The notes beneath the pieces were generated by a model. The model searched no databases. It was not told where the DNA came from and saw only the letters and a program-made list of their open reading frames with translations. Positions 6,014-57,800 of a stretch of DNA of 64,000 nucleotides are shown here, in pieces (position 1 is the stretch's first letter; each line of letters starts with the position of its first letter). Source of the DNA: Gordonia hankookensis (GTDB lineage: Bacteria > Actinomycetota > Actinomycetes > Mycobacteriales > Mycobacteriaceae); NCBI RefSeq assembly GCF_014673215.1, contig NZ_JACWMS010000001.1, forward strand, positions 806,001 to 870,000, given 5' to 3'. The position numbers and the translations under genes were made by a program.

Positions 6014-7402
6014 TCATGCCCCGGTGGTCGGACCGCCTGGCGGCGGTCCCAGCCGGAGCTCGATGTCGGGCGACGGCGGGCTCTCCGGTTCGTGCTCGTA
6101 CCCGAGTACGGCGGGAACAACATCGGGTACCTCGCCGACCACCTGCTGTCCGTTGTCCTCGGTCACCAGGTAGTCGGGCACCTGGTGTTGTTCGTTGGAC
6201 GCACCGGCGCCGCGTGCGGTTCCCGCCGCCCCCATCGGCGCCATGGACGCAGGCATCGCGTTGGTCGAAGTCACGGTCCCGCGCGTGGCCTGCTGCGGGC
6301 TGTAGCCGGCCGGTTCGGTCATCCCGAGGGCGGGGCTGCTGAACGGGCGCGGCGCCAGAGGTGCCGCTGCGGCACCGACAGCGCCGATGCCGCCACCGCC
6401 GCCCGCATGCCCTTTGCCGCCACCGCCGCCTGCATGCCCTTTGCCGCCACCGCCGGCGCCCCCACCGCCGGGACCGCCGCCCTTGCCCGCGGCCGGCTCC
6501 CCCTTCGCGGACGTGAGCGGGTCCACCTTGGCGCTCGACAACATGCTGCTCACCGGTGACGCGATCATCGACGGCAGTTCGGACGCCGACGACACGGCCG
6601 GGGATGCGCCGTCGAGGACCGCGCTGGCGACCGCGAACGGCGACTGCGCCGAGCTCGCGGGTGTGGGTGCGTTGGTGATCGGCACCGGTGCGCCGTTCGT
6701 CGTCATCTTCGCCGTGGGTCCCAGCAGCTGCGCACGGGTGAGGGCGACTTGAGCGGTCGCCTCGGCGAGACCCTCGGTGGCGAATCCGACCGCCGCGCCC
6801 TGCCCGAACGGCGTCATGATGAGCGGGATGGTCGCGGAGATCTTGCCGATCGTCGCCGCGATGATCGCCTGCACCGCCGCGAGACCCGCCCCGACGATCC
6901 CGGCCGCGGCCTGGATGTCGAACGACATCCCGGTGCCCTGCGTCGTGACGTTCGCGGTGTCGCCGGTCGCGATCGCCGATTTGCCGACGGCTGCGGTCGA
7001 CGCGGTCCCGGTCCAGAGTTTGTCGAGCGCCTTGACCGCCCCGGAACTCATGGACATCGTCGTCTCGAGCACTTTCGACAGGCTCTGGAAGATCGCCGAG
7101 GGATCGAAATCGCCGGCCCCGAGGTTTCCGGTGCCGAATCCGCCGAGCAGATCGGTCAGCGGTTTGATGAGGATGTCGAGGTTGATCGGCGGCAACGACG
7201 GCAGCCCCGGGAGCGGAGCCGACGGTGGCGGCATCACCGGCAACGCGGGCAACCCGTGACCGGCCAGGACGTCGGCGACCGACTTGTCCAGGATCGGACC
7301 CAGCGGCGACGCGTTGATCATCTCCTGCACCGTCATGTGCGACATGGCAGGTACGTCGGGAATCCCGGCCGGCACCGGGCCGGGAAATGGCGTGCCCGTC
7401 AC
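6014..7402 (-). CDS. Gly-rich ESX-locus protein (EspA/EspB-like position)
   Basis: The 462-residue protein matches no family I can name. The first 70 residues are Pro-rich with MTVQEMINASPLGPILDKSVADVLAGHG. A central part (about 100-230) is Ala/Gly/Thr-rich and helical. A very Gly-rich hinge (about 305-350) holds a 9-residue tandem repeat, GKGHAGGGG. The tail is acidic and ends in Pro/Gly. GTG start; its first 4 bases overlap the stop of the EspC-like gene, so the two are translationally coupled. A coupled small EspC-like plus a large partner recalls EspC-EspA of M. tuberculosis, but the similarity is positional only. It may be a secreted substrate. Confidence 0.65.
   Translation of the reverse strand: MTGTPFPGPVPAGIPDVPAMSHMTVQEMINASPLGPILDKSVADVLAGHGLPALPVMPPPSAPLPGLPSLPPINLDILIKPLTDLLGGFGTGNLGAGDFDPSAIFQSLSKVLETTMSMSSGAVKALDKLWTGTASTAAVGKSAIATGDTANVTTQGTGMSFDIQAAAGIVGAGLAAVQAIIAATIGKISATIPLIMTPFGQGAAVGFATEGLAEATAQVALTRAQLLGPTAKMTTNGAPVPITNAPTPASSAQSPFAVASAVLDGASPAVSSASELPSMIASPVSSMLSSAKVDPLTSAKGEPAAGKGGGPGGGGAGGGGKGHAGGGGGKGHAGGGGGIGAVGAAAAPLAPRPFSSPALGMTEPAGYSPQQATRGTVTSTNAMPASMAPMGAAGTARGAGASNEQHQVPDYLVTEDNGQQVVGEVPDVVPAVLGYEHEPESPPSPDIELRLGPPPGGPTTGA
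6405..6458. repeat. 27-bp tandem repeat inside the Gly-rich gene
   Basis: Two adjacent 27-bp copies begin at 6405 and 6432, each starting GCATGCCCTTTGCC. They encode the 9-residue unit GKGHAGGGG on the minus strand. Copy number may vary between strains. Confidence 0.7.
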
Positions 7403-7707
7403 CGGACCGATCGGATCGCGGAACCGGCTGCCGCATCCTCGGATTGGAACTCGGCCAGACCCGCGAACGTCGCTGCTGCGGTTCCGGCATGGACCGCGGC
7501 GAGGTTGCCGACCGACATCAGATGATTGGCCTGCGCCACTATGAACGACGCCAGGAACTCCTGGCCGATGAGTCCGAACACCGGGACCATCACGGCGGTG
7601 TTCGCCGCGGCGTTGATCGACCCGGCGGCACCGACCGCGGTGGCCATGGCAGCACTCGTGGCACCGAAGGCCTCGACCACCTCCGGCACAACCGTCACAT
7701 CGCTCAT
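7399..7707 (-). CDS. EspC-like type VII secretion-associated protein
   Basis: The 102-residue protein resembles the EspC/DUF2580 group: MSDVTVVPEVVEAFGATSAAMATAVGAAGSINAAANTAVMVPVFGLIGQEFLASFIVAQANHLMSVGNLAAVHAGTAAATFAG. These are small, Ala-rich, two-helix proteins secreted through ESX-1-like systems. GGGAGGG lies just upstream of the ATG. Its stop overlaps the start of the 462-aa gene by 4 bases, so the two products are probably made in equal amounts and may work together. The upstream gap to the YbaB-like gene is 108 bp. Confidence 0.7.
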   Translation of the reverse strand: MSDVTVVPEVVEAFGATSAAMATAVGAAGSINAAANTAVMVPVFGLIGQEFLASFIVAQANHLMSVGNLAAVHAGTAAATFAGLAEFQSEDAAAGSAIRSVR

Positions 7708-7815
7708 CGCTGTTCCCTCCCGTTCACGTCCATGGACGTTGCGATCATCTCGTTGATTCCTCGATCAGACGCATCCGCGACCGATCTGGTTCCCACCACG
7801 TGTCACCGGAACGGG

Positions 7816-8142
7816 TCATCCGCTCCCCGGTCGGGAGTCGAGCAGTTCCGCGAACGATTCGTTGAACTCCTCGGTGATCAGGGCGCGCTTCGCGAAGGCG
7901 CGCTGAGCCGCAAGCGCGGCGGTCCCGACGATCAGTTCACCCAGGCGTTGGCCGCCGACCTCGTTGGCTCCCGGCGCCAACCACAGACCGGTCATGGCTC
8001 CGACGCCGTCGACCTCGACGGTCACCAGATCATCGGCCGACGTCTCCCGCACACTGATCGCCGCGAACTTCTCGTTCAGCTCGTACATGCTGTTCAACTG
8101 CGCGTTGGCCCGGGCCTCGAGCTCATCCATCGCCCAACTCAT
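7816..8142 (-). CDS. YbaB/EbfC-like protein of the ESX locus (EspL-like)
   Basis: The 108-residue protein begins MSWAMDELEARANAQLNSMYELNEKF and continues into a small beta-sheet (DLVTVEVDGVGAMTGLWLAPGA) and a C-terminal helix. This is the YbaB/EbfC fold seen in EspL of ESX-1 loci. YbaB proteins are nucleoid-associated dimers, whereas those in ESX loci appear to help stabilise or regulate substrates. The longer frame upstream has no ribosome site. ATG at 8142 has GAGGGAG 5 nt before it. Confidence 0.75.
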   Translation of the reverse strand: MSWAMDELEARANAQLNSMYELNEKFAAISVRETSADDLVTVEVDGVGAMTGLWLAPGANEVGGQRLGELIVGTAALAAQRAFAKRALITEEFNESFAELLDSRPGSG

Positions 8143-8152
8143 GCCGTCTCCC

Positions 8153-8560
8153 TCAGACCGATCGCAGCCAGGAGGCCGGCGCATCGTGGTCACGGTCGTC
8201 GAGCTGTTCGGCTCGAGCGAGGTCGTCGGGTCTGGGCAGTTTCATCGCGTCCACGACGTCACGGGCGACCCCGGAGGCGACGAGCTGCTCGCGCAGACGG
8301 ATGCCTGCGGCCATCGCCGATTGCTGACAGAGCCGGAGAATCTCGCCGGCGAGGACCGTGGGCTCCTTCGACAGGGCCGAGTTGTCGATCCGCACCGACA
8401 TCGGCAGTCCCTGCGGCGTGGTGACCACCGAGACAGCACCGGAGCGCGATCGCGCCGACGACAGCGCGTGCGCCGCATCGACATCGTTCTCCTCCGCCGA
8501 TCGCCGGGTCACAGACGCCCCCGCGTGAGCGGACACGGCGCCGCCATCATGAGATGTCAT
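8153..8560 (-). CDS. Second YbaB/EbfC-like ESX-locus protein
   Basis: The 135-residue protein is a probable diverged paralogue of its downstream neighbour. A beta region (SGAVSVVTTPQGLPMSVRIDNSALSKEP) leads into a helix (TVLAGEILRLCQQSAMAAGIRLREQLVASG), the YbaB-like arrangement, followed by a polar tail. ATG at 8560 is preceded by AAGGGGGG. A gap of only 10 bp to the next YbaB-like gene suggests that they are co-expressed and possibly form a heterodimer. It is the first gene of the minus-strand ESX operon. The family assignment is moderate. Confidence 0.6.
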   Translation of the reverse strand: MTSHDGGAVSAHAGASVTRRSAEENDVDAAHALSSARSRSGAVSVVTTPQGLPMSVRIDNSALSKEPTVLAGEILRLCQQSAMAAGIRLREQLVASGVARDVVDAMKLPRPDDLARAEQLDDRDHDAPASWLRSV

Positions 8561-8894
8561 GGCGATGTACCCCCCTTCATGACACTTGGACGCGACCCGG
8601 CCTCGATCGGTTCCCCGAGCCGACGAACTGTTCCGGATCCCCCGATCGACCGCGCACACGCCATGTGGGTGTCTGCACCACGACGACCGGAGCGCACAGA
8701 TGTGTTCCGGTCGTCTGTGTTCCGGTTGTCGTCGGACGATCCTGCCATAGCAGTCGCCGAGCATCCACACAACATCCGGGTTTCCCTCTGTTCGAACGAC
8801 CGTGGGGCGTCAGGCTTCGCCAGGGGCGCGATCCGGTGGGGATCAACCGTCCCCCGCACGCCCTCCTCGCATCGCGATCGGCGATGCTGTCAGG
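8561..8894. other. 334-bp divergent intergenic region
   Basis: No gene is evident. The region separates the minus-strand ESX operon from the plus-strand CoA-transferase and should hold both promoters. A short direct repeat, GTGTTCCGGT, occurs twice at about 8702-8725. Confidence 0.5.
8744..8772 (-). promoter_or_regulatory. Candidate promoter of the ESX operon
   Basis: On the minus strand, TTGTGT (8767-8772) is separated by 17 nt from TATGGC (8744-8749). This would start transcription near 8737, about 175 nt ahead of the first YbaB-like gene. The -35 is weak. Confidence 0.3.
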
Positions 8895-10115
8895 GTGACC
8901 AACACCGACGTTTCTCTCCCGGGTGCACTCGACGGTCTCCGCGTCCTCGAACTGGGCACCCTCATCGCGGGCCCGTTCGCCGGACGCCTCCTCGGCGACA
9001 TGGGCGCCGAGGTGATCAAGATCGAGGCCCCGGGCTCCCCCGACCCGATCCGGACCTGGGGACAGGCCGAGCAGGACGGCGAGCGGGTCTATTGGACGGT
9101 CCACGCGCGCAACAAGAAGGTCATCACCCTGGACCTCAGGGCGGCAGCGGGCCGCGAGGTCTTCCTCGACCTCATCGATCACGCCGACATCGTGGTGGAG
9201 AACTTCCGGCCCGGCACCCTCGAACGATGGGACCTCGGCTACGACGTGCTCTCGGACCGAAACCCCGGGGTCATCCTGGTTCGGGTGTCCGGGTACGGAC
9301 AGACCGGACCGGCCGCGAGCCGAGCCGGGTACGCGTCGGTCGCGGAGGCCGAGAGCGGTCTGCGCTACCTGAACGGTTACCCGGGCGAGGCCCCGCCACG
9401 GCTGGCGTTGTCGCTCGGCGACACGCTCGCAGGGATGTTCGCCGCGCAGGGTGCGCTGGCCGCCGTCTACCGGCGGACGGTGACCGGCAGAGGGCAGGTG
9501 GTGGACACCGCTCTCACCGAGGCCTGTCTCGCCGTGCAGGAGTCGACGATCGCCGACTACGACCTCGCAGGCGTCGTCCGAGGCCCCTCCGGGACTCGGC
9601 TCGACGGCATCGCGCCGTCCAACCTCTATCAGGCCGCCGACGGGCTGCGCGTCGTGATCGCGGCGAATCAGGACACCGTCTTCCGCAGACTCTGCGACGC
9701 CATGGGCCGGACCGACCTCGCGACGGACCCGCGATTCGCCGACCACCGGGCTCGCGGGATCAACCAGGACGAACTCGACGGGATCATCGCCGACTGGGCC
9801 GGCGTGCACACCAGCGCCGAGCTGATCGAGATCCTCGGTACGGCGGGTGTCGTCGTCGGCCCGGTGAACACGATCGCCGAGGTGGTTCGTGACCCGCAGA
9901 TGCTGGCCCGCGACATGCTGGTGCCGCATCACGACGAGCGTCTGGGACGTGACGTGCTCGGTCCCGGCATCGTGCCGAGACTCTCCGAGAGCCCCGGTCG
10001 AGTGCGTTCGGCCGGTCCGCCGCGGCCGGGCGCACACAACGACGAGATCTATCGTGGGCTCCTCGGCCTCGACGACGACGCGGTGTCCGAGCTCACCGAG
10101 CACGGTGTCATCTGA
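8895..10115 (+). CDS. CaiB/BaiF family III CoA-transferase
   Basis: The protein is 406 residues from GTG 8895, the normal length for family III acyl-CoA transferases, which move CoA between carboxylic acids through an Asp-linked anhydride. The N-terminal LDGLRVLELGTLIAGPFAGRLLGDMGAEVIKIE is diagnostic. Further matches are ENFRPGTLERWDLGY and LALSLGDTLAGMFA, whose Asp176 aligns with the catalytic aspartate. Substrates cannot be inferred. The longer frame upstream is unlikely. GTG 8895 has only a weak AGG just before it, so the start is uncertain. Neighbours give no metabolic context. Confidence 0.85.
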   Translation: MTNTDVSLPGALDGLRVLELGTLIAGPFAGRLLGDMGAEVIKIEAPGSPDPIRTWGQAEQDGERVYWTVHARNKKVITLDLRAAAGREVFLDLIDHADIVVENFRPGTLERWDLGYDVLSDRNPGVILVRVSGYGQTGPAASRAGYASVAEAESGLRYLNGYPGEAPPRLALSLGDTLAGMFAAQGALAAVYRRTVTGRGQVVDTALTEACLAVQESTIADYDLAGVVRGPSGTRLDGIAPSNLYQAADGLRVVIAANQDTVFRRLCDAMGRTDLATDPRFADHRARGINQDELDGIIADWAGVHTSAELIEILGTAGVVVGPVNTIAEVVRDPQMLARDMLVPHHDERLGRDVLGPGIVPRLSESPGRVRSAGPPRPGAHNDEIYRGLLGLDDDAVSELTEHGVI

Positions 10116-53024: not shown

Positions 53025-53068
53025 CATCTCGTGCGGCCGACATCCATCCAGGTCGGCCGCACGAGATG
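53025..53068 (+). terminator. 17-bp hairpin after narK
   Basis: CATCTCGTGCGGCCGAC pairs perfectly with 53052-53068 around a 10-nt loop, 27 bp after the narK stop. There is no U-tract, as is common in actinobacteria. It should end the nar operon. Confidence 0.7.
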
Positions 53069-53195
53069 ACACCGCGATACCGCGGTGGCGCATCCTCGGG
53101 CCCCTCGACCCGAGCCGCGGTCGGCGCGGACCGATATATTCCTCAACGATGACCGCCGCACCCATGCCGCCGGCCGCCTCGAGGAGCCACTGACG

Positions 53196-53864
53196 TTGGA
53201 ACACCATCCACTGACGCCGTCGCAGAGCGCTGTGTTGTTCGTGCTGATGTCGCAGGCACGAGATGTGTCGAACCCGGAACTCCGGACCCTCGCGCCCGAA
53301 CTGACCCGCCCGAGCCGGCAGAAGCTCATCGACCTGGGCCTCATCGAATCGGCGAAGGGACCACGCAACAGCTACGTGCACAGCCTGACCGATCGCGGGT
53401 GGGCTTGGTGTGCAAGAGAACTCGACGAGACACCGCCCAAGGGCGCGCAGCCGCCGATTCGTGCGCTGTATGCGGTGATGGCGAGCATCGGGCGGTACCT
53501 CGTCGCCGACGACCTGCGCCTGCACGAGGTGTTCCGACCTCCCGCATCGCCTCCCGTACCGGTACCCGTCGCGCCCCCGGCAGCACCCATCGCGCCCGAC
53601 GACGACGTCGACCGCCGGATTCGTGCCGCCTATACGCACTCGGCGCGCGGGCCCGGCGCCTGGGTGGCGATGACCACGCTGCGGGCCGCTCTCCCCGATG
53701 TCGAGGCGGCCGAGCTCGACGACGCCCTCGTCCGCCTGCAGAGGCGACCGGGGGTGAGTCTCATCCCGCAGGAGGATCAGATGCTGCTGACCGACGCCGA
53801 CAGGTCGGCCGCGGTGCGGGTCGGCACCCAGCTGTGTCACCTCTTCGCGATCGAGGACCTCTGA
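53196..53864 (+). CDS. Winged-helix protein coupled to a double ATPase
   Basis: The 222-residue protein has an N-terminal winged-helix domain, PLTPSQSAVLFVLMSQARDVSNPELRTLAPELTRPSRQKLIDLGLIESAKGPRNSYVHSLTDRGWAW, like a MarR-type fold. A Pro-rich linker (PPASPPVPVPVAPPAAP) leads to a second small helical/winged region (DDDVDRRIRAAYTHSARGPGAWVAMTTLRAALPDVEAAELDDALVRLQRRPGVSLIPQEDQ). TTG 53196 is preceded by GAGGAG; the frame is open further up to 53085, so the start is uncertain. The last base of its stop is the A of the ATPase ATG, so the two are obligately coupled. The role is unknown; it may recruit the ATPase to DNA. Confidence 0.7.
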   Translation: MEHHPLTPSQSAVLFVLMSQARDVSNPELRTLAPELTRPSRQKLIDLGLIESAKGPRNSYVHSLTDRGWAWCARELDETPPKGAQPPIRALYAVMASIGRYLVADDLRLHEVFRPPASPPVPVPVAPPAAPIAPDDDVDRRIRAAYTHSARGPGAWVAMTTLRAALPDVEAAELDDALVRLQRRPGVSLIPQEDQMLLTDADRSAAVRVGTQLCHLFAIEDL

Positions 53865-56800
53865 TGGACGAACCCACCCGGCAAGCGCTCGAATCGATCC
53901 GACTCGATTGGGCCGCCACCCCGGACGACGTCTGGGGATCGCAGGCGCCACTGCATGTCCGGGGATTGCACGAGCCAACCGTGGACGAGATCATCCGTGC
54001 CTTCGACGACGCCAGACGCAGCAGCGGCGCGAGTCCGCTCGGTGTGGCCGTGCGGGGACCGGCAGGTGCGGGCAAGACCCACCTGCTCGGCCAGGTCCGC
54101 GAACGTGTCCAGGCGGCGGGCGGATACTTCTTCCTCGTCAAACTCCTGGACGGCGAGGATTTCTGGCGTTCGGTTCTGGTCGCCATGCTCGAGGATCTGA
54201 GTCGGCCCACTCCGACCCACCGATCCCAACTCGCCCAGCTCCTCGATCAACTCGGCCGCGACACCGGGGTCGCGGCGGCCGATCTGGACGCCGTGACCGG
54301 CACCACCGAGGTGACCCCCGAGATCCTCGACCGCTTCATCACGTCGGTGTACACCAAACACTCGCGACACCGCCGCAGATCCCAGCACATCCTGCGCGCG
54401 CTCGTGCTGACCGAGGCGGACGACTTCGCCACCAAGGATCTCGGCGAGGCGTTTCTGCACCTCGACGTCGACGACGGGCAGGAGTTGGCCGTCTGGGGTA
54501 TCCGCAACGCCCGGCTCGGCTACCACGAGATCGTCGAGAACATCTCCCGGATCATCGCCTTCGACAACGCGTCGGTACTGGCCATCGACCAGATCGACAC
54601 GCTCATCGAGGCCGCGAAGTCGGAGAACCGGCACGACGAGAACGCAGTCGAGAAGGTCGCCCACGGCCTCATGTCCATCCGCGAGACGATGAGCCGTACG
54701 GCGGCGGTGGTCTCGTGTATCACGGCCGCCTGGGACTATCTGGAAAACCGGGTCATGGCGTCGGCGACGGACCGGTTCCGTCAGCCACCCAACCTACAAC
54801 GGCCCTCGACCGCCGACTTCGGACGCGCCCTGCTCGCCAAACGTTTTGCACCATGCTTCGCCGAGGTCGGCTTCCGCCCTCCTTACCCCACGTGGCCGGT
54901 CACCGACCGGGCGCTCGTGGCATCGGTGGATTTCACTCCCCGCGAACTGATGCGCACCGCGGACCGTCACATCGGCGCCTGCCTGCGCGCCGACACCTTC
55001 ACCGAGATGACGTCGCTGACCGCCGATCAACAGCCCGAGTACACCTCGCAGTCGGACGAGAATCCCGCGCTCGCGCAGCTCGATCGGCGTTTCGACGAAC
55101 TGCTCGATGCCACCGACCCGGCGCCGGCTGTGGCCCCACAGAGCGAGGATCGCGTCGTCCCGCCATTACTCCAGGCGGGACTGGCCTCGTGGATCGAGGC
55201 ACTCGGAGACGCCGGGACGGCCTTCAAACAGGATCCGAAGCCCAGCCCCAAAGCCGTTCTGCACGGGCGCATCCGACGTATCCTCGATCCGGATACCGAC
55301 GCCGAGCAGTCGTGGGCGTTTCGTGGACTCTCGGCCACCCATCACCGCGCAGTGCAGGCCCGACTCGCCAACGCGACGACAGCGGCCGGACTCTCTCTCG
55401 GGACTGCGGCCCGTGCACTCATCGTCCTCCGACGTGAACCCTGGCCGTCGGGCGCCAGGACCCAGGAGATGGTGGCCGAGTTCGAGCAACGCGGTGGCCG
55501 AGTGATCTCCTGGACCGATGAGGACATCCGCGTCCTCTCCGCGTTGGCCCGGATACGTTCGGAGCGTTCGGAATTCCTCACCGAGTGGATCGCGCGACGC
55601 AACCCCGCGGCCCGCGTCGGCTTCATCAAGGAGATCCTCGAGCCGGCCGTCGACGCAGCGCCGCCCACCCTGGATGTCGTCCCGACCCCCACCGCTGCCG
55701 TACGGCCCGATGGCCCTCGCGGCTGGACCGCACCGGAATCGTCCCGCCCTGTCGACCGCTACGCCGTTCCCGCGCTCAGCGAAATAGCCCAGAACGTGGT
55801 CCTCGGCGCCTTCTCCACCGTAAAGAGCTCGGCCCCAGAGGTTTCGGGGGAAACGGGTGCGGGAGTGACGCAGCAGACCCGCGCGACGTCACCGGACGGC
55901 ACCGCCATCCCGCTCGGGACCGTGGTCGGCGACGGCCGTCCCGTGCACATCGGCCTCGAAGCCCTCCGCAAGCACACCGCAATCTTCGCGGGTTCGGGTT
56001 CGGGGAAGACCGTGCTGATCCGCCGGATCGTCGAAGAGGCTGCCCTGCAGGGCGTCTCGTCGATCGTGCTCGATGTGAACAACGACCTCGCGCGGCTGGG
56101 TACGGCGTGGCCGCAGGGGACCCGCGACTGGCACACCGGCGACGAGCGCAAGGCTGCCGATTACCTCGCAGGCACCGAGGTCGTGGTGTTCACCCCCGGC
56201 CGGAGCAACGGGAGACCGCTGAGCTTTCGTCCGCTGCCGGATTTCGCGGGTGTCCTCGATGACCCGGACGAGTTCACCGCCGCGGTCGAATCCGCCGCGG
56301 CCGGTCTCATCCCCCGAGCCATGGTGGCAGGCAAGACCGCCAAGTCGGTGCAGTCGCGCGCGGTCCTGCACGATGCACTCCGGTACTTCGGCAGACAGGG
56401 CGGCGGTGCGATCGCCGACTTCATCGACGTGCTGGCCGATCTGCCGGACGACGTGAGCGGACTGATGAACGCGCGCAAGTTCGCCGGTGAGATCGCCGAG
56501 AACCTGAAGGCGGCACGCGCGAACGACCCGATGTTCGGCGGGCACGGCGTCCCGGCGGACCCCGGCCTGCTGCTCACGCCGTCGCCGGGCTTCCGGGCCC
56601 GGGTGTCGGTGATCAACCTCGCGGCACTGAGCAGCGACGACAAGCGCAACAACTTCGTCAACGAGCTGCAGATGGCCTTGTTCGCGTGGATCAAGAAGAA
56701 CCCGGCGGCACAGCTACCGCTCGGCGGACTCTTCGTGATGGACGAGGCGCAGAACTATGCGCCGTCGGATCGGACGACCCCGTGCAGCCAGAGCACCCTC

Positions 56801-57130
56801 GCCCTGGTCTCCCAGGCCCGTAAGTACGGTCTTGGTCTGGTCTTCGCCACCCAGGCGCCGAAGGGCCTGGACAACAAGATCCCCGGCAACGCGTCGACGC
56901 AGTTCTTCGGCCTCCTCAACTCCCCCGCCCAGATCTCCGCGGCCCAGGCGATCGCGAAGACCAAGGGCAGTGTCATCCCGGATGTCGGACGACTGTCGAC
57001 GGGCGTGTTCTACACGGCACTCGACGGCGGAGTGTTCGCGAAAACGCAGACTCCCTTGTGCCTCTCGTACCATCCGAAGAGCCCGCCGACGGAGGACGAG
57101 GTCGTCGCGATCGCCCGAGGCGACCGCTGA
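53864..57130 (+). CDS. Double P-loop protein: AAA/KAP-like domain plus HerA/FtsK-like translocase
   Basis: The 1088-residue protein has two ATPase modules. Module 1 (about 55-380) has Walker A GPAGAGKT (65-72) and Walker B SVLAIDQID (237-245). Module 2 (about 680-1085) has Walker A GSGSGKT (710-716), LDVNNDLARLG, Walker B GLFVMDEAQNY (955-965) and GLVFATQAPKGLDNKIPGNASTQ (991-1013), the pattern of HerA/DUF87 DNA-translocating ATPases. The linker (about 430-600) is predicted to be helical. It probably acts on DNA as a hexamer. HerA-type ATPases often partner nucleases in defence, but no nuclease is adjacent. It may be a housekeeping or defence system; I cannot name the family. Confidence 0.75.
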   Translation: MDEPTRQALESIRLDWAATPDDVWGSQAPLHVRGLHEPTVDEIIRAFDDARRSSGASPLGVAVRGPAGAGKTHLLGQVRERVQAAGGYFFLVKLLDGEDFWRSVLVAMLEDLSRPTPTHRSQLAQLLDQLGRDTGVAAADLDAVTGTTEVTPEILDRFITSVYTKHSRHRRRSQHILRALVLTEADDFATKDLGEAFLHLDVDDGQELAVWGIRNARLGYHEIVENISRIIAFDNASVLAIDQIDTLIEAAKSENRHDENAVEKVAHGLMSIRETMSRTAAVVSCITAAWDYLENRVMASATDRFRQPPNLQRPSTADFGRALLAKRFAPCFAEVGFRPPYPTWPVTDRALVASVDFTPRELMRTADRHIGACLRADTFTEMTSLTADQQPEYTSQSDENPALAQLDRRFDELLDATDPAPAVAPQSEDRVVPPLLQAGLASWIEALGDAGTAFKQDPKPSPKAVLHGRIRRILDPDTDAEQSWAFRGLSATHHRAVQARLANATTAAGLSLGTAARALIVLRREPWPSGARTQEMVAEFEQRGGRVISWTDEDIRVLSALARIRSERSEFLTEWIARRNPAARVGFIKEILEPAVDAAPPTLDVVPTPTAAVRPDGPRGWTAPESSRPVDRYAVPALSEIAQNVVLGAFSTVKSSAPEVSGETGAGVTQQTRATSPDGTAIPLGTVVGDGRPVHIGLEALRKHTAIFAGSGSGKTVLIRRIVEEAALQGVSSIVLDVNNDLARLGTAWPQGTRDWHTGDERKAADYLAGTEVVVFTPGRSNGRPLSFRPLPDFAGVLDDPDEFTAAVESAAAGLIPRAMVAGKTAKSVQSRAVLHDALRYFGRQGGGAIADFIDVLADLPDDVSGLMNARKFAGEIAENLKAARANDPMFGGHGVPADPGLLLTPSPGFRARVSVINLAALSSDDKRNNFVNELQMALFAWIKKNPAAQLPLGGLFVMDEAQNYAPSDRTTPCSQSTLALVSQARKYGLGLVFATQAPKGLDNKIPGNASTQFFGLLNSPAQISAAQAIAKTKGSVIPDVGRLSTGVFYTALDGGVFAKTQTPLCLSYHPKSPPTEDEVVAIARGDR

Positions 57131-57200: not shown

Positions 57201-57800
57201 ATGTCCGACCATGCCGCCGCCATCCGGGGACTGCGCCGCTGGCATCCGAACCCGTTGGTTCAGGACACGATCAACCGAATCCGAGCACACGGATGGGCGG
57301 TGACCGCGATCAGTGAGCAATGCTCCTGCCCGTCCGACGAGTGCCATCCGCCGGATTGCTCCTTCGCCTACACCTCGGGGATGGGTCTGCACAGCATCCC
57401 GGAGCTCGCCGTCTACGGGCTCGACGCCTGGACCAGCCGGGAGTTGCTCAACGAGCTCGGTGACATCTTCCACACCTACGACTGGCGGGACGCGGTCGAT
57501 CGAGGTGTCGAGATCATGGTGAGCTCCCTCGACGTCCCGGTCCGCGTCATCGAGATGATCGACAAGGACGATCTGGTCGTGACGGGCGAGTTGTTCCCGG
57601 ACGCGCCGGCACTGCAGGCGGTCTGGGCGGATGACTTCGGGAAATACCCGTGGGACGAGGGCTATGCGCTCACCGAACTCGATCAGAAGCTGACAGGCGT
57701 TGCCGGCACGGGCGCAGATCGGGTCCGGGCACAGCGGGTGATCAACCGCGGGGCCGGCCCCAATCGGGCGCAGCGCAGAGCAGCCTTGCGCAGGCGCTGA
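57201..57800 (+). CDS. DUF4262-domain protein
   Basis: The 199-residue protein reads INRIRAHGWAVTAISEQCSCPSDECHPPDCSFAYTSGMGLHSIPELAVYGLDAWTSRELLNELGDIF, the DUF4262 pattern. A cluster of cysteines (CSCPSDECHPPDC) is inserted where many family members have none and could bind metal. ATG 57201 has AAAGGAG upstream. It lies 70 bp after the ATPase gene and may be co-transcribed. Function unknown. Confidence 0.8.
   Translation: MSDHAAAIRGLRRWHPNPLVQDTINRIRAHGWAVTAISEQCSCPSDECHPPDCSFAYTSGMGLHSIPELAVYGLDAWTSRELLNELGDIFHTYDWRDAVDRGVEIMVSSLDVPVRVIEMIDKDDLVVTGELFPDAPALQAVWADDFGKYPWDEGYALTELDQKLTGVAGTGADRVRAQRVINRGAGPNRAQRRAALRRR

What the first reader, a model, noticed from the sequence alone, without database searches (positions are those of the whole stretch)
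53196..57130. Coupled winged-helix protein and 1088-residue protein with two ATPase modules
A DNA-binding-like protein and a protein joining an AAA/KAP-like P-loop (65-72) to a HerA/FtsK-like P-loop (710-716) share a TGATG junction, so they are made together. HerA-type ATPases usually work with a nuclease or in known defence systems; here none is adjacent. Their position between the nar operon and the split ribosomal operon has no metabolic logic. This is the strongest candidate in the window for an undescribed system (defence, replicon maintenance or DNA processing). The similarity to HerA rests on motifs I read; the function is inference.
Basis: partly seen in the sequence, partly recalled or inferred. 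Interest (0 to 1): 0.72.

Follow-up and report, generated by a model that had tools for sequence, protein, structure and literature searches.

The report
Defence-like motor operon, nuclease deleted
Two coupled genes in a Gordonia-like bacterium, a DNA-binding protein and a large two-motor ATPase, belong to a scattered three-gene operon that usually begins with a probable DNA-cutting enzyme; here that enzyme's gene has been deleted while its two partners are kept intact, which makes a probable anti-invader machine testable in pieces.

Summary
In detail: a 222-aa protein (53196-53864) and a 1088-aa ATPase (53864-57130) overlap at TGATG; P-loops at 65-72 and 710-716. Structure prediction gives two winged helices in the first, and in the second an Orc/Cdc6-type AAA+ domain (7-387) and a HerA/FtsK domain (678-1069, best match DndH C-domain). 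"No nuclease adjacent" is true only here: in relatives a DUF559 (Vsr-like) nuclease gene lies directly upstream, in 33 of 38 related loci with upstream DNA and in 14 of the 19 same-genus genomes that carry the ATPase (0 of 40 without it). The window keeps that gene's promoter-like element, first and last codons as a 14-residue mini-ORF; two other same-genus genomes share the junction. ATPase omega among the three is 0.11-0.13, so the pair outlived the nuclease under purifying selection. The trio is patchy in Actinomycetota and occurs in two Alphaproteobacteria; three Actinoplanes loci have an AbiU/AIPR-type gene instead. Best reading: a new variant of the published "HerA/FtsK capture" anti-invader systems, in a nuclease-deleted form that probably still acts. 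DUF4262 downstream is a resident of the site, not a partner. No anti-phage function has been shown.

The parts
53135..53140 (+). TATATT, -10-like element inherited from the nuclease gene, 8 bases before the ATG at 53149 (possibly leaderless)
   Evidence: position. TATATT found by script in the stretch upstream of, or at, the nuclease start in 8 of 14 same-genus nuclease genes (not in the other 6), and seen in L021. No transcript evidence.
53149..53193 (+). 14-codon mini-ORF: remnant of the DUF559 nuclease gene (first and last codons, middle deleted)
   Evidence: same junction in G036 and G076; start region resembles the nuclease start of G028, end resembles the nuclease ends of G028 and G026
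53181..53186 (+). GAGGAG, likely ribosome-binding site of the winged-helix gene
   Evidence: read; 9 bases before TTG 53196
53196..53864 (+). Two-winged-helix protein, 222 aa, TTG start; second gene of the ancestral operon
53864..57130 (+). 1088-aa two-motor ATPase
53864..55024 (+). Orc/Cdc6-type AAA+ domain of the ATPase (residues 1-387)
55061..55663 (+). Middle alpha/beta domain (residues 400-600), identity unproven; order of helices and strands like a restriction-endonuclease fold (read by eye)
   Evidence: secondary structure; no firm sequence match; barely covered by the fold search
55898..57097 (+). HerA/FtsK-type motor (residues 679-1078)
57201..57800 (+). DUF4262 protein; neighbour, judged not part of the system
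   Evidence: Pfam 1.9e-22; present near the same ribosomal genes in 10 of 20 same-genus genomes chosen from the 40 without the system

Best explanation
The pair is the core of a three-gene anti-invader operon: (1) a DUF559/Vsr-like nuclease, (2) a double winged-helix DNA-binding protein, (3) an Orc/Cdc6 AAA+ - HerA/FtsK ATPase. Proposed working: the winged-helix protein and the AAA+ module seat the complex on foreign DNA; the HerA/FtsK module forms a ring and pumps that DNA; the nuclease cuts it. In this genome the nuclease gene was removed by an internal deletion that left its promoter-like element, start and stop as a short ORF ending just before the winged-helix start, so winged helix and ATPase can still be made. 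The remaining pair is under selection, so it probably still acts, either by binding and pumping invader DNA without cutting or by using a nuclease encoded elsewhere. Shown by sequence: gene order, domains, deletion scar, purifying selection, patchy spread. Inferred: nuclease activity, ring formation, DNA pumping, invader target, residual function.
For: Nuclease gene directly upstream in 33 of 38 loci with upstream DNA (3 of the 41 loci are cut off by contig ends). In the genus, 14 of 59 genomes have the nuclease and all 14 are among the 19 with the ATPase, one small gene away by coordinates; 14 of 19 against 0 of 40, Fisher p 8.7e-10. DUF559 Pfam E 1.2e-12 to 3.8e-14 in 5 of 5 tested; profile match to endonuclease-like 3hrl 2.2e-11; E267, D298, E309, D311, H315 invariant in 9 aligned. 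Nuclease and ATPase distances correlate, r 0.83 over 46 loci, 0 of 1000 permutations as high (shared descent contributes). Deletion scar shared by three genomes. ATPase omega 0.109-0.129, winged helix 0.157-0.232 among them. The same three genes in Xanthobacter, Tsukamurella, Nonomuraea and Methylobacterium. In 3 of 4 Actinoplanes loci, all 4 without the nuclease, a gene of one cluster lies directly downstream; its member from L048 is AIPR (8.6e-45) and AbiU (379 bits). HerA fold matches include SIR2-HerA and HerA-DUF4297 anti-phage complexes.
Against: No experiment. PADLOC gives only weak partial hits on the nuclease (best DpdF 1.2e-4, 18 bits) and none on the winged-helix protein. The site is a variable gap near ribosomal genes, not a clear defence island: ORFs at 16 same-genus sites without the system look mostly metabolic or unknown (judged by eye, not searched). 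No copy in phage records or viral contigs. In many Rhodococcus/Rhodococcoides, Williamsia and Gordonia the operon sits near the same ribosomal genes, so part of the spread is vertical. A second genome lineage that lost the nuclease (G064) also lost most of the rest. Whether the remaining pair needs a nuclease is untested.
Confidence: 0.62

Rival explanations
1. The pair here is a decaying remnant: after nuclease loss it no longer works and is on its way out.
For: G064 carries a clearly decayed copy: half a winged-helix gene and an ATPase cut before the HerA part. Nuclease presence changed at least four times on the tree.
Against: ATPase and winged-helix ORFs are intact in G000, G036 and G076, with omega 0.109-0.129 and 0.157-0.232 at ATPase dS up to 0.60; the AAA+ part is at 0.036-0.046. 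Motifs are intact, and the two changes in the mini-ORF between these genomes are synonymous (read by eye).
Confidence: 0.15
2. A DNA-maintenance or chromosome/plasmid processing module (segregation, replication restart, repair) in which the nuclease is optional.
For: Orc/Cdc6 and HerA/FtsK folds are also those of replication, segregation and repair proteins. Recurrent place near ribosomal genes. No clear defence island.
Against: No match in 40 of 59 same-genus genomes and in 390 of 396 sampled Actinomycetota. Scattered to Alphaproteobacteria. An abortive-infection-type gene in place of the nuclease in three Actinoplanes loci.
Confidence: 0.15
3. The winged-helix protein is mainly the operon's own regulator, and the ATPase alone (with the nuclease) is the machine.
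For: First wHTH resembles MarR regulators.
Against: Two wHTH domains, a start codon overlapping its stop for the ATPase, and multi-wHTH partners as DNA-recognition subunits in DndG/SspB-type systems (PMC10853773, section 19).
Confidence: 0.08

Closest known systems
Orc/CDC6-linked 'HerA/FtsK capture' systems (Rakesh, Aravind, Krishnan 2024, PMC10853773)
   Same: Orc/Cdc6 AAA+, HerA/FtsK with Q sensor and R finger, wHTH, a nuclease; domains in varying arrangements
   Different: Their section 22 names two REase families, one also found in AbiJ; DUF559 and Vsr do not occur in the main text (supplements not seen). Here both motors are one polypeptide, and in the window the nuclease is lost.
DndFGH
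   Different: DndH averages about 1700 residues with eight domains, among them inactive SF2 and methylase domains and an active REase (section 21); that architecture is not seen here
HerA-SIR2 (Nezha), HerA-DUF4297, TdpAB, HerA-NurA
   Same: HerA motor solved in complex with a partner protein; all among the fold matches (names from PDB titles)
   Different: No N-terminal Orc/Cdc6 module in those HerA proteins and other partner proteins (recalled, not tested here)
MADS mad8 (PADLOC PDLC04140)
   Same: Best PADLOC score, 60.5 bits over 682-1018
   Different: Only the HerA part matches; the two neighbours scanned (winged helix, DUF4262) match no PADLOC model
AbiU / AIPR
   Same: Related gene directly downstream of the ATPase in three Actinoplanes loci
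   Different: Not seen among the neighbours printed for the Gordonia loci; a partner in another branch

Membership tests
HerA/FtsK capture system, Orc/CDC6 class | Orc/Cdc6-type AAA+ ATPase | tested here: met
HerA/FtsK capture system, Orc/CDC6 class | HerA/FtsK domain with sensor Q and upstream arginine finger | tested here: met
   R986 and Q997 invariant in 31; their roles are assigned by position, not tested
HerA/FtsK capture system, Orc/CDC6 class | wHTH component | tested here: met
   separate gene; two wHTH in the model, the first confirmed by fold match
HerA/FtsK capture system, Orc/CDC6 class | active nuclease | tested here: not met
   Not met in the window (deleted). In most relatives a DUF559 gene with invariant acidic/His residues. 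Hence the window locus is filed as a nuclease-less derivative.
HerA/FtsK capture system, Orc/CDC6 class | inactive REase inserted between AAA+ core and its C-terminal wHTH | tested here: inconclusive
   Domain 400-600 has a compatible helix/strand order but no firm sequence match; it was not folded alone
HerA/FtsK capture system, Orc/CDC6 class | HerA/FtsK clade 2, 4 or 5 of the published tree | not tested
   the published alignment was not used
   no KAP model among 23 Pfam families listed up to E 1; fold matches are Orc/Cdc6-type
DndFGH | full-length DndH architecture (about 1700 aa, eight domains) | tested here: not met
   1088 aa with an Orc/Cdc6 AAA+ N-terminal half; DndF was not searched for as such
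HerA-nuclease two-gene defence systems | effector gene next to the HerA gene | tested here: not met
   in the window only a 14-codon remnant upstream and DUF4262 downstream

The most novel reading that the evidence does not exclude
A restriction-like machine that has discarded its nuclease and lives on as a nuclease-free DNA motor: the Orc/Cdc6-HerA protein and its winged-helix partner block invading DNA by loading and pumping alone (or borrow a cellular nuclease), and this step happened independently at least twice in Gordonia.
Probability: 0.33. Interest if true: 0.72.

Novelty: new variant of a known kind. Interest (0 to 1): 0.56.

Why it matters
It defines a compact three-gene operon (DUF559 nuclease, double winged helix, Orc/Cdc6-HerA ATPase) for a class that the paper I read describes from sequence and structure analysis. 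It also supplies natural nuclease-deleted versions kept by selection. That makes it directly testable whether HerA/FtsK 'capture' motors can act without cutting, and whether effectors (DUF559, AbiU/AIPR-type) are interchangeable on one motor.

Tried and rejected
Rejected: KAP NTPase for the first module. DUF4262 as partner: it is near the same ribosomal genes in 10 of 20 same-genus genomes chosen from the 40 without the system. A named nuclease elsewhere in the own genome as the true partner: no match at 1e-10 to the operon nuclease; one search finds only 38% over 65 residues in a 288-aa frame, and one search lists five DUF559 hits, none of which I can tie to the pair. Defence island at the site: ORFs at 16 sites read by eye do not look like one. 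MADS membership: mads_8 matches the HerA part only.

Led nowhere: phage records and viral contigs gave no relative; of 385 genomes of the class of the Xanthobacter genome only that genome itself matched; sequence searches with the middle domain gave only weak hits; paper searches gave no description of this operon (listings only, apart from PMC10853773 and passages of PMC12839542; the listing showed no paper on the MADS system).

Limits: the ATPase tree is a quick one with some long branches. Gene calls come from my own simple ORF caller and contain antisense miscalls and missed genes (the winged-helix gene among them), so neighbours are illustrative. In one search four ATPase rows under 900 residues were left out of the tree (58 to 54), and 46 loci entered the distance test out of 58 ATPase and 50 nuclease rows. 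The omega test assumes that the scar was inherited, not passed between species. L024 and L051 are Rhodococcus records that treekit labels as a cyanobacterial family, so the labels or assemblies may be mixed. The Tsukamurella and Nonomuraea records are filed as plasmids, but the first carries the ribosomal protein cluster and the second is 11.85 Mb.
Full report
What is there. The window lies in a Gordonia-like genome: G000 has 5.2 Mb in 7 contigs, and the best full-length named match to the ATPase is Gordonia tangerina. At 53196-53864 a 222-aa protein with a TTG start is followed, with a TGATG overlap, by a 1088-aa ATPase at 53864-57130. Upstream are a nitrate reductase delta subunit and an MFS transporter, narK by position (the other nar genes named by me from their sequence). 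Downstream are a DUF4262 gene and, on the other strand, ribosomal proteins S14, L5, L24 and L14 (named by me from the ORFs; the same set is annotated in the record).

The missing third gene. A scan of named genomes gave 41 loci with a relative of the ATPase. Clustering of neighbours showed a protein of about 375 aa directly upstream of the winged-helix gene. By tblastn it is present in 33 of 41 loci, absent in 5 (L021, L039, L047, L048, L061) and untestable in 3 cut-off contigs (L050, L054, L058). All five proteins tested carry DUF559 (PF04480, 1.2e-12 to 3.8e-14), and a profile of nine matches the endonuclease-like chain 3hrl (2.2e-11) and weakly a mobile-intron protein (0.03). In the genus, 19 of 59 genomes have the ATPase at 1e-50 and 14 of 59 have the nuclease at 1e-10. 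All 14 are among the 19, one small gene away by coordinates (Fisher p 8.7e-10). The five without it are G000 (this window), G036, G076, G080 (apparently the G. tangerina genome) and G064.

How it was lost. G026 has narK, nuclease, winged helix and ATPase in order. In the window the promoter-like TATATT and start are followed, about 11 codons later, by the nuclease's last codons, giving a 14-residue ORF (53149-53193) that stops two bases before the winged-helix start. G036 and G076 have the same scar; G036 is identical to the window inside the mini-ORF and G076 differs by two synonymous changes (read by eye). G. tangerina has a different, longer remnant and groups with nuclease-bearing G028 (support 99), so loss happened more than once in the genus. 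Over 54 rows the tree needs at least four changes of nuclease presence.

Is the remaining pair alive? Among the three genomes with the shared scar, omega is 0.109-0.129 for the ATPase and 0.157-0.232 for the winged helix. The AAA+ part is at 0.036-0.046, the HerA part at 0.103-0.122 and the neighbour narK at 0.070-0.125. Synonymous divergence of the ATPase reaches 0.60. This speaks for continued function. Against it stands G064, where nuclease, half the winged helix and the HerA part are gone.

Spread and partners. The ATPase is in 6 of 396 Actinomycetota genomes sampled (two of the six are same-genus, including the window's own). It is in Xanthobacter and on a Methylobacterium megaplasmid, with nuclease and winged helix in the same order (the winged-helix hit in Methylobacterium is weak, 1e-7). 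In Tsukamurella the trio, annotated DUF559 / hypothetical / DUF87, sits inside the ribosomal protein cluster beside a VapB/PIN pair. Nonomuraea has it too. All four Actinoplanes loci lack the nuclease; three of them have a gene of one cluster directly downstream of the ATPase, and its member from L048 is AIPR and AbiU. Actinoplanes L039 and genome G050, also without the nuclease, share a divergent gene for a large WD40-repeat protein, with a protease-like start in L039, where a Trypco1 gene lies next to it. Nuclease and ATPase divergence correlate (r 0.83, 46 loci). The pair is duplicated in tandem in L051, with one nuclease. No copy was found in phage records or viral contigs.

The site. In 20 same-genus genomes chosen from the 40 without the system, the same gap near S14 holds varied genes, DUF4262 in 10 of 20 stretches of 14-16 kb. 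So DUF4262 belongs to the site, and the site is variable rather than a clear defence island.

What is known. PMC10853773 (abstract and sections 19, 21, 22, 26 read) proposes 'HerA/FtsK capture' systems that combine an Orc/CDC6 ATPase, an inactive and an active REase, HerA/FtsK and wHTH proteins. It suggests that the AAA+ and wHTH parts localise the complex and that the HerA part intercepts or pumps invader DNA. PMC12839542 (12 of 41 passages seen) extends the idea to BREX-related systems. The present operon fits in AAA+, HerA and wHTH, adds DUF559 as nuclease, and in this window lacks it. I therefore call it a new variant of a known kind; its function rests on inference.

Noticed in passing
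window 53025-53068: A perfect inverted repeat (17-base arms 53025-53041 and 53052-53068, read by eye) between narK and the mini-ORF, perhaps the narK terminator though without a run of T; the stem differs between G000, G036 and G076 with changes in both arms.
   Followed up: no
L134:6541-12261 (Tsukamurella tyrosinosolvens record NZ_LR134464.1): The trio and a VapB/PIN pair sit inside the ribosomal protein cluster, between rplN and rpsQ; the record is labelled a plasmid, so either a replicon with ribosomal genes or a mislabelled chromosome piece.
   Followed up: partly
L039:4727-9094 and L073 (G050): A divergent gene for a large WD40-repeat protein (1335 and 1369 aa; protease-like start in L039), with a Trypco1 gene in L039, beside the nuclease-less pair.
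   Followed up: partly
L051:610-9573 and G025 (L070): Tandem copies: in L051 two winged-helix/ATPase pairs behind one nuclease gene; in G025 a second ATPase-like frame of 655 aa without the HerA part.
   Followed up: partly
L112 (G064), about 6400-10000: A decayed copy: C-terminal half of the winged-helix gene and an ATPase ending before the HerA part, behind a gene that looks like XdhC (by eye).
   Followed up: partly
Rhodococcus and same-genus loci (e.g. L041:6417-7790): A TerD-AIM24 protein (Pfam) is a frequent neighbour near the same ribosomal genes in loci with the system; similar-looking ORFs stand at some sites without it (by eye).
   Followed up: no
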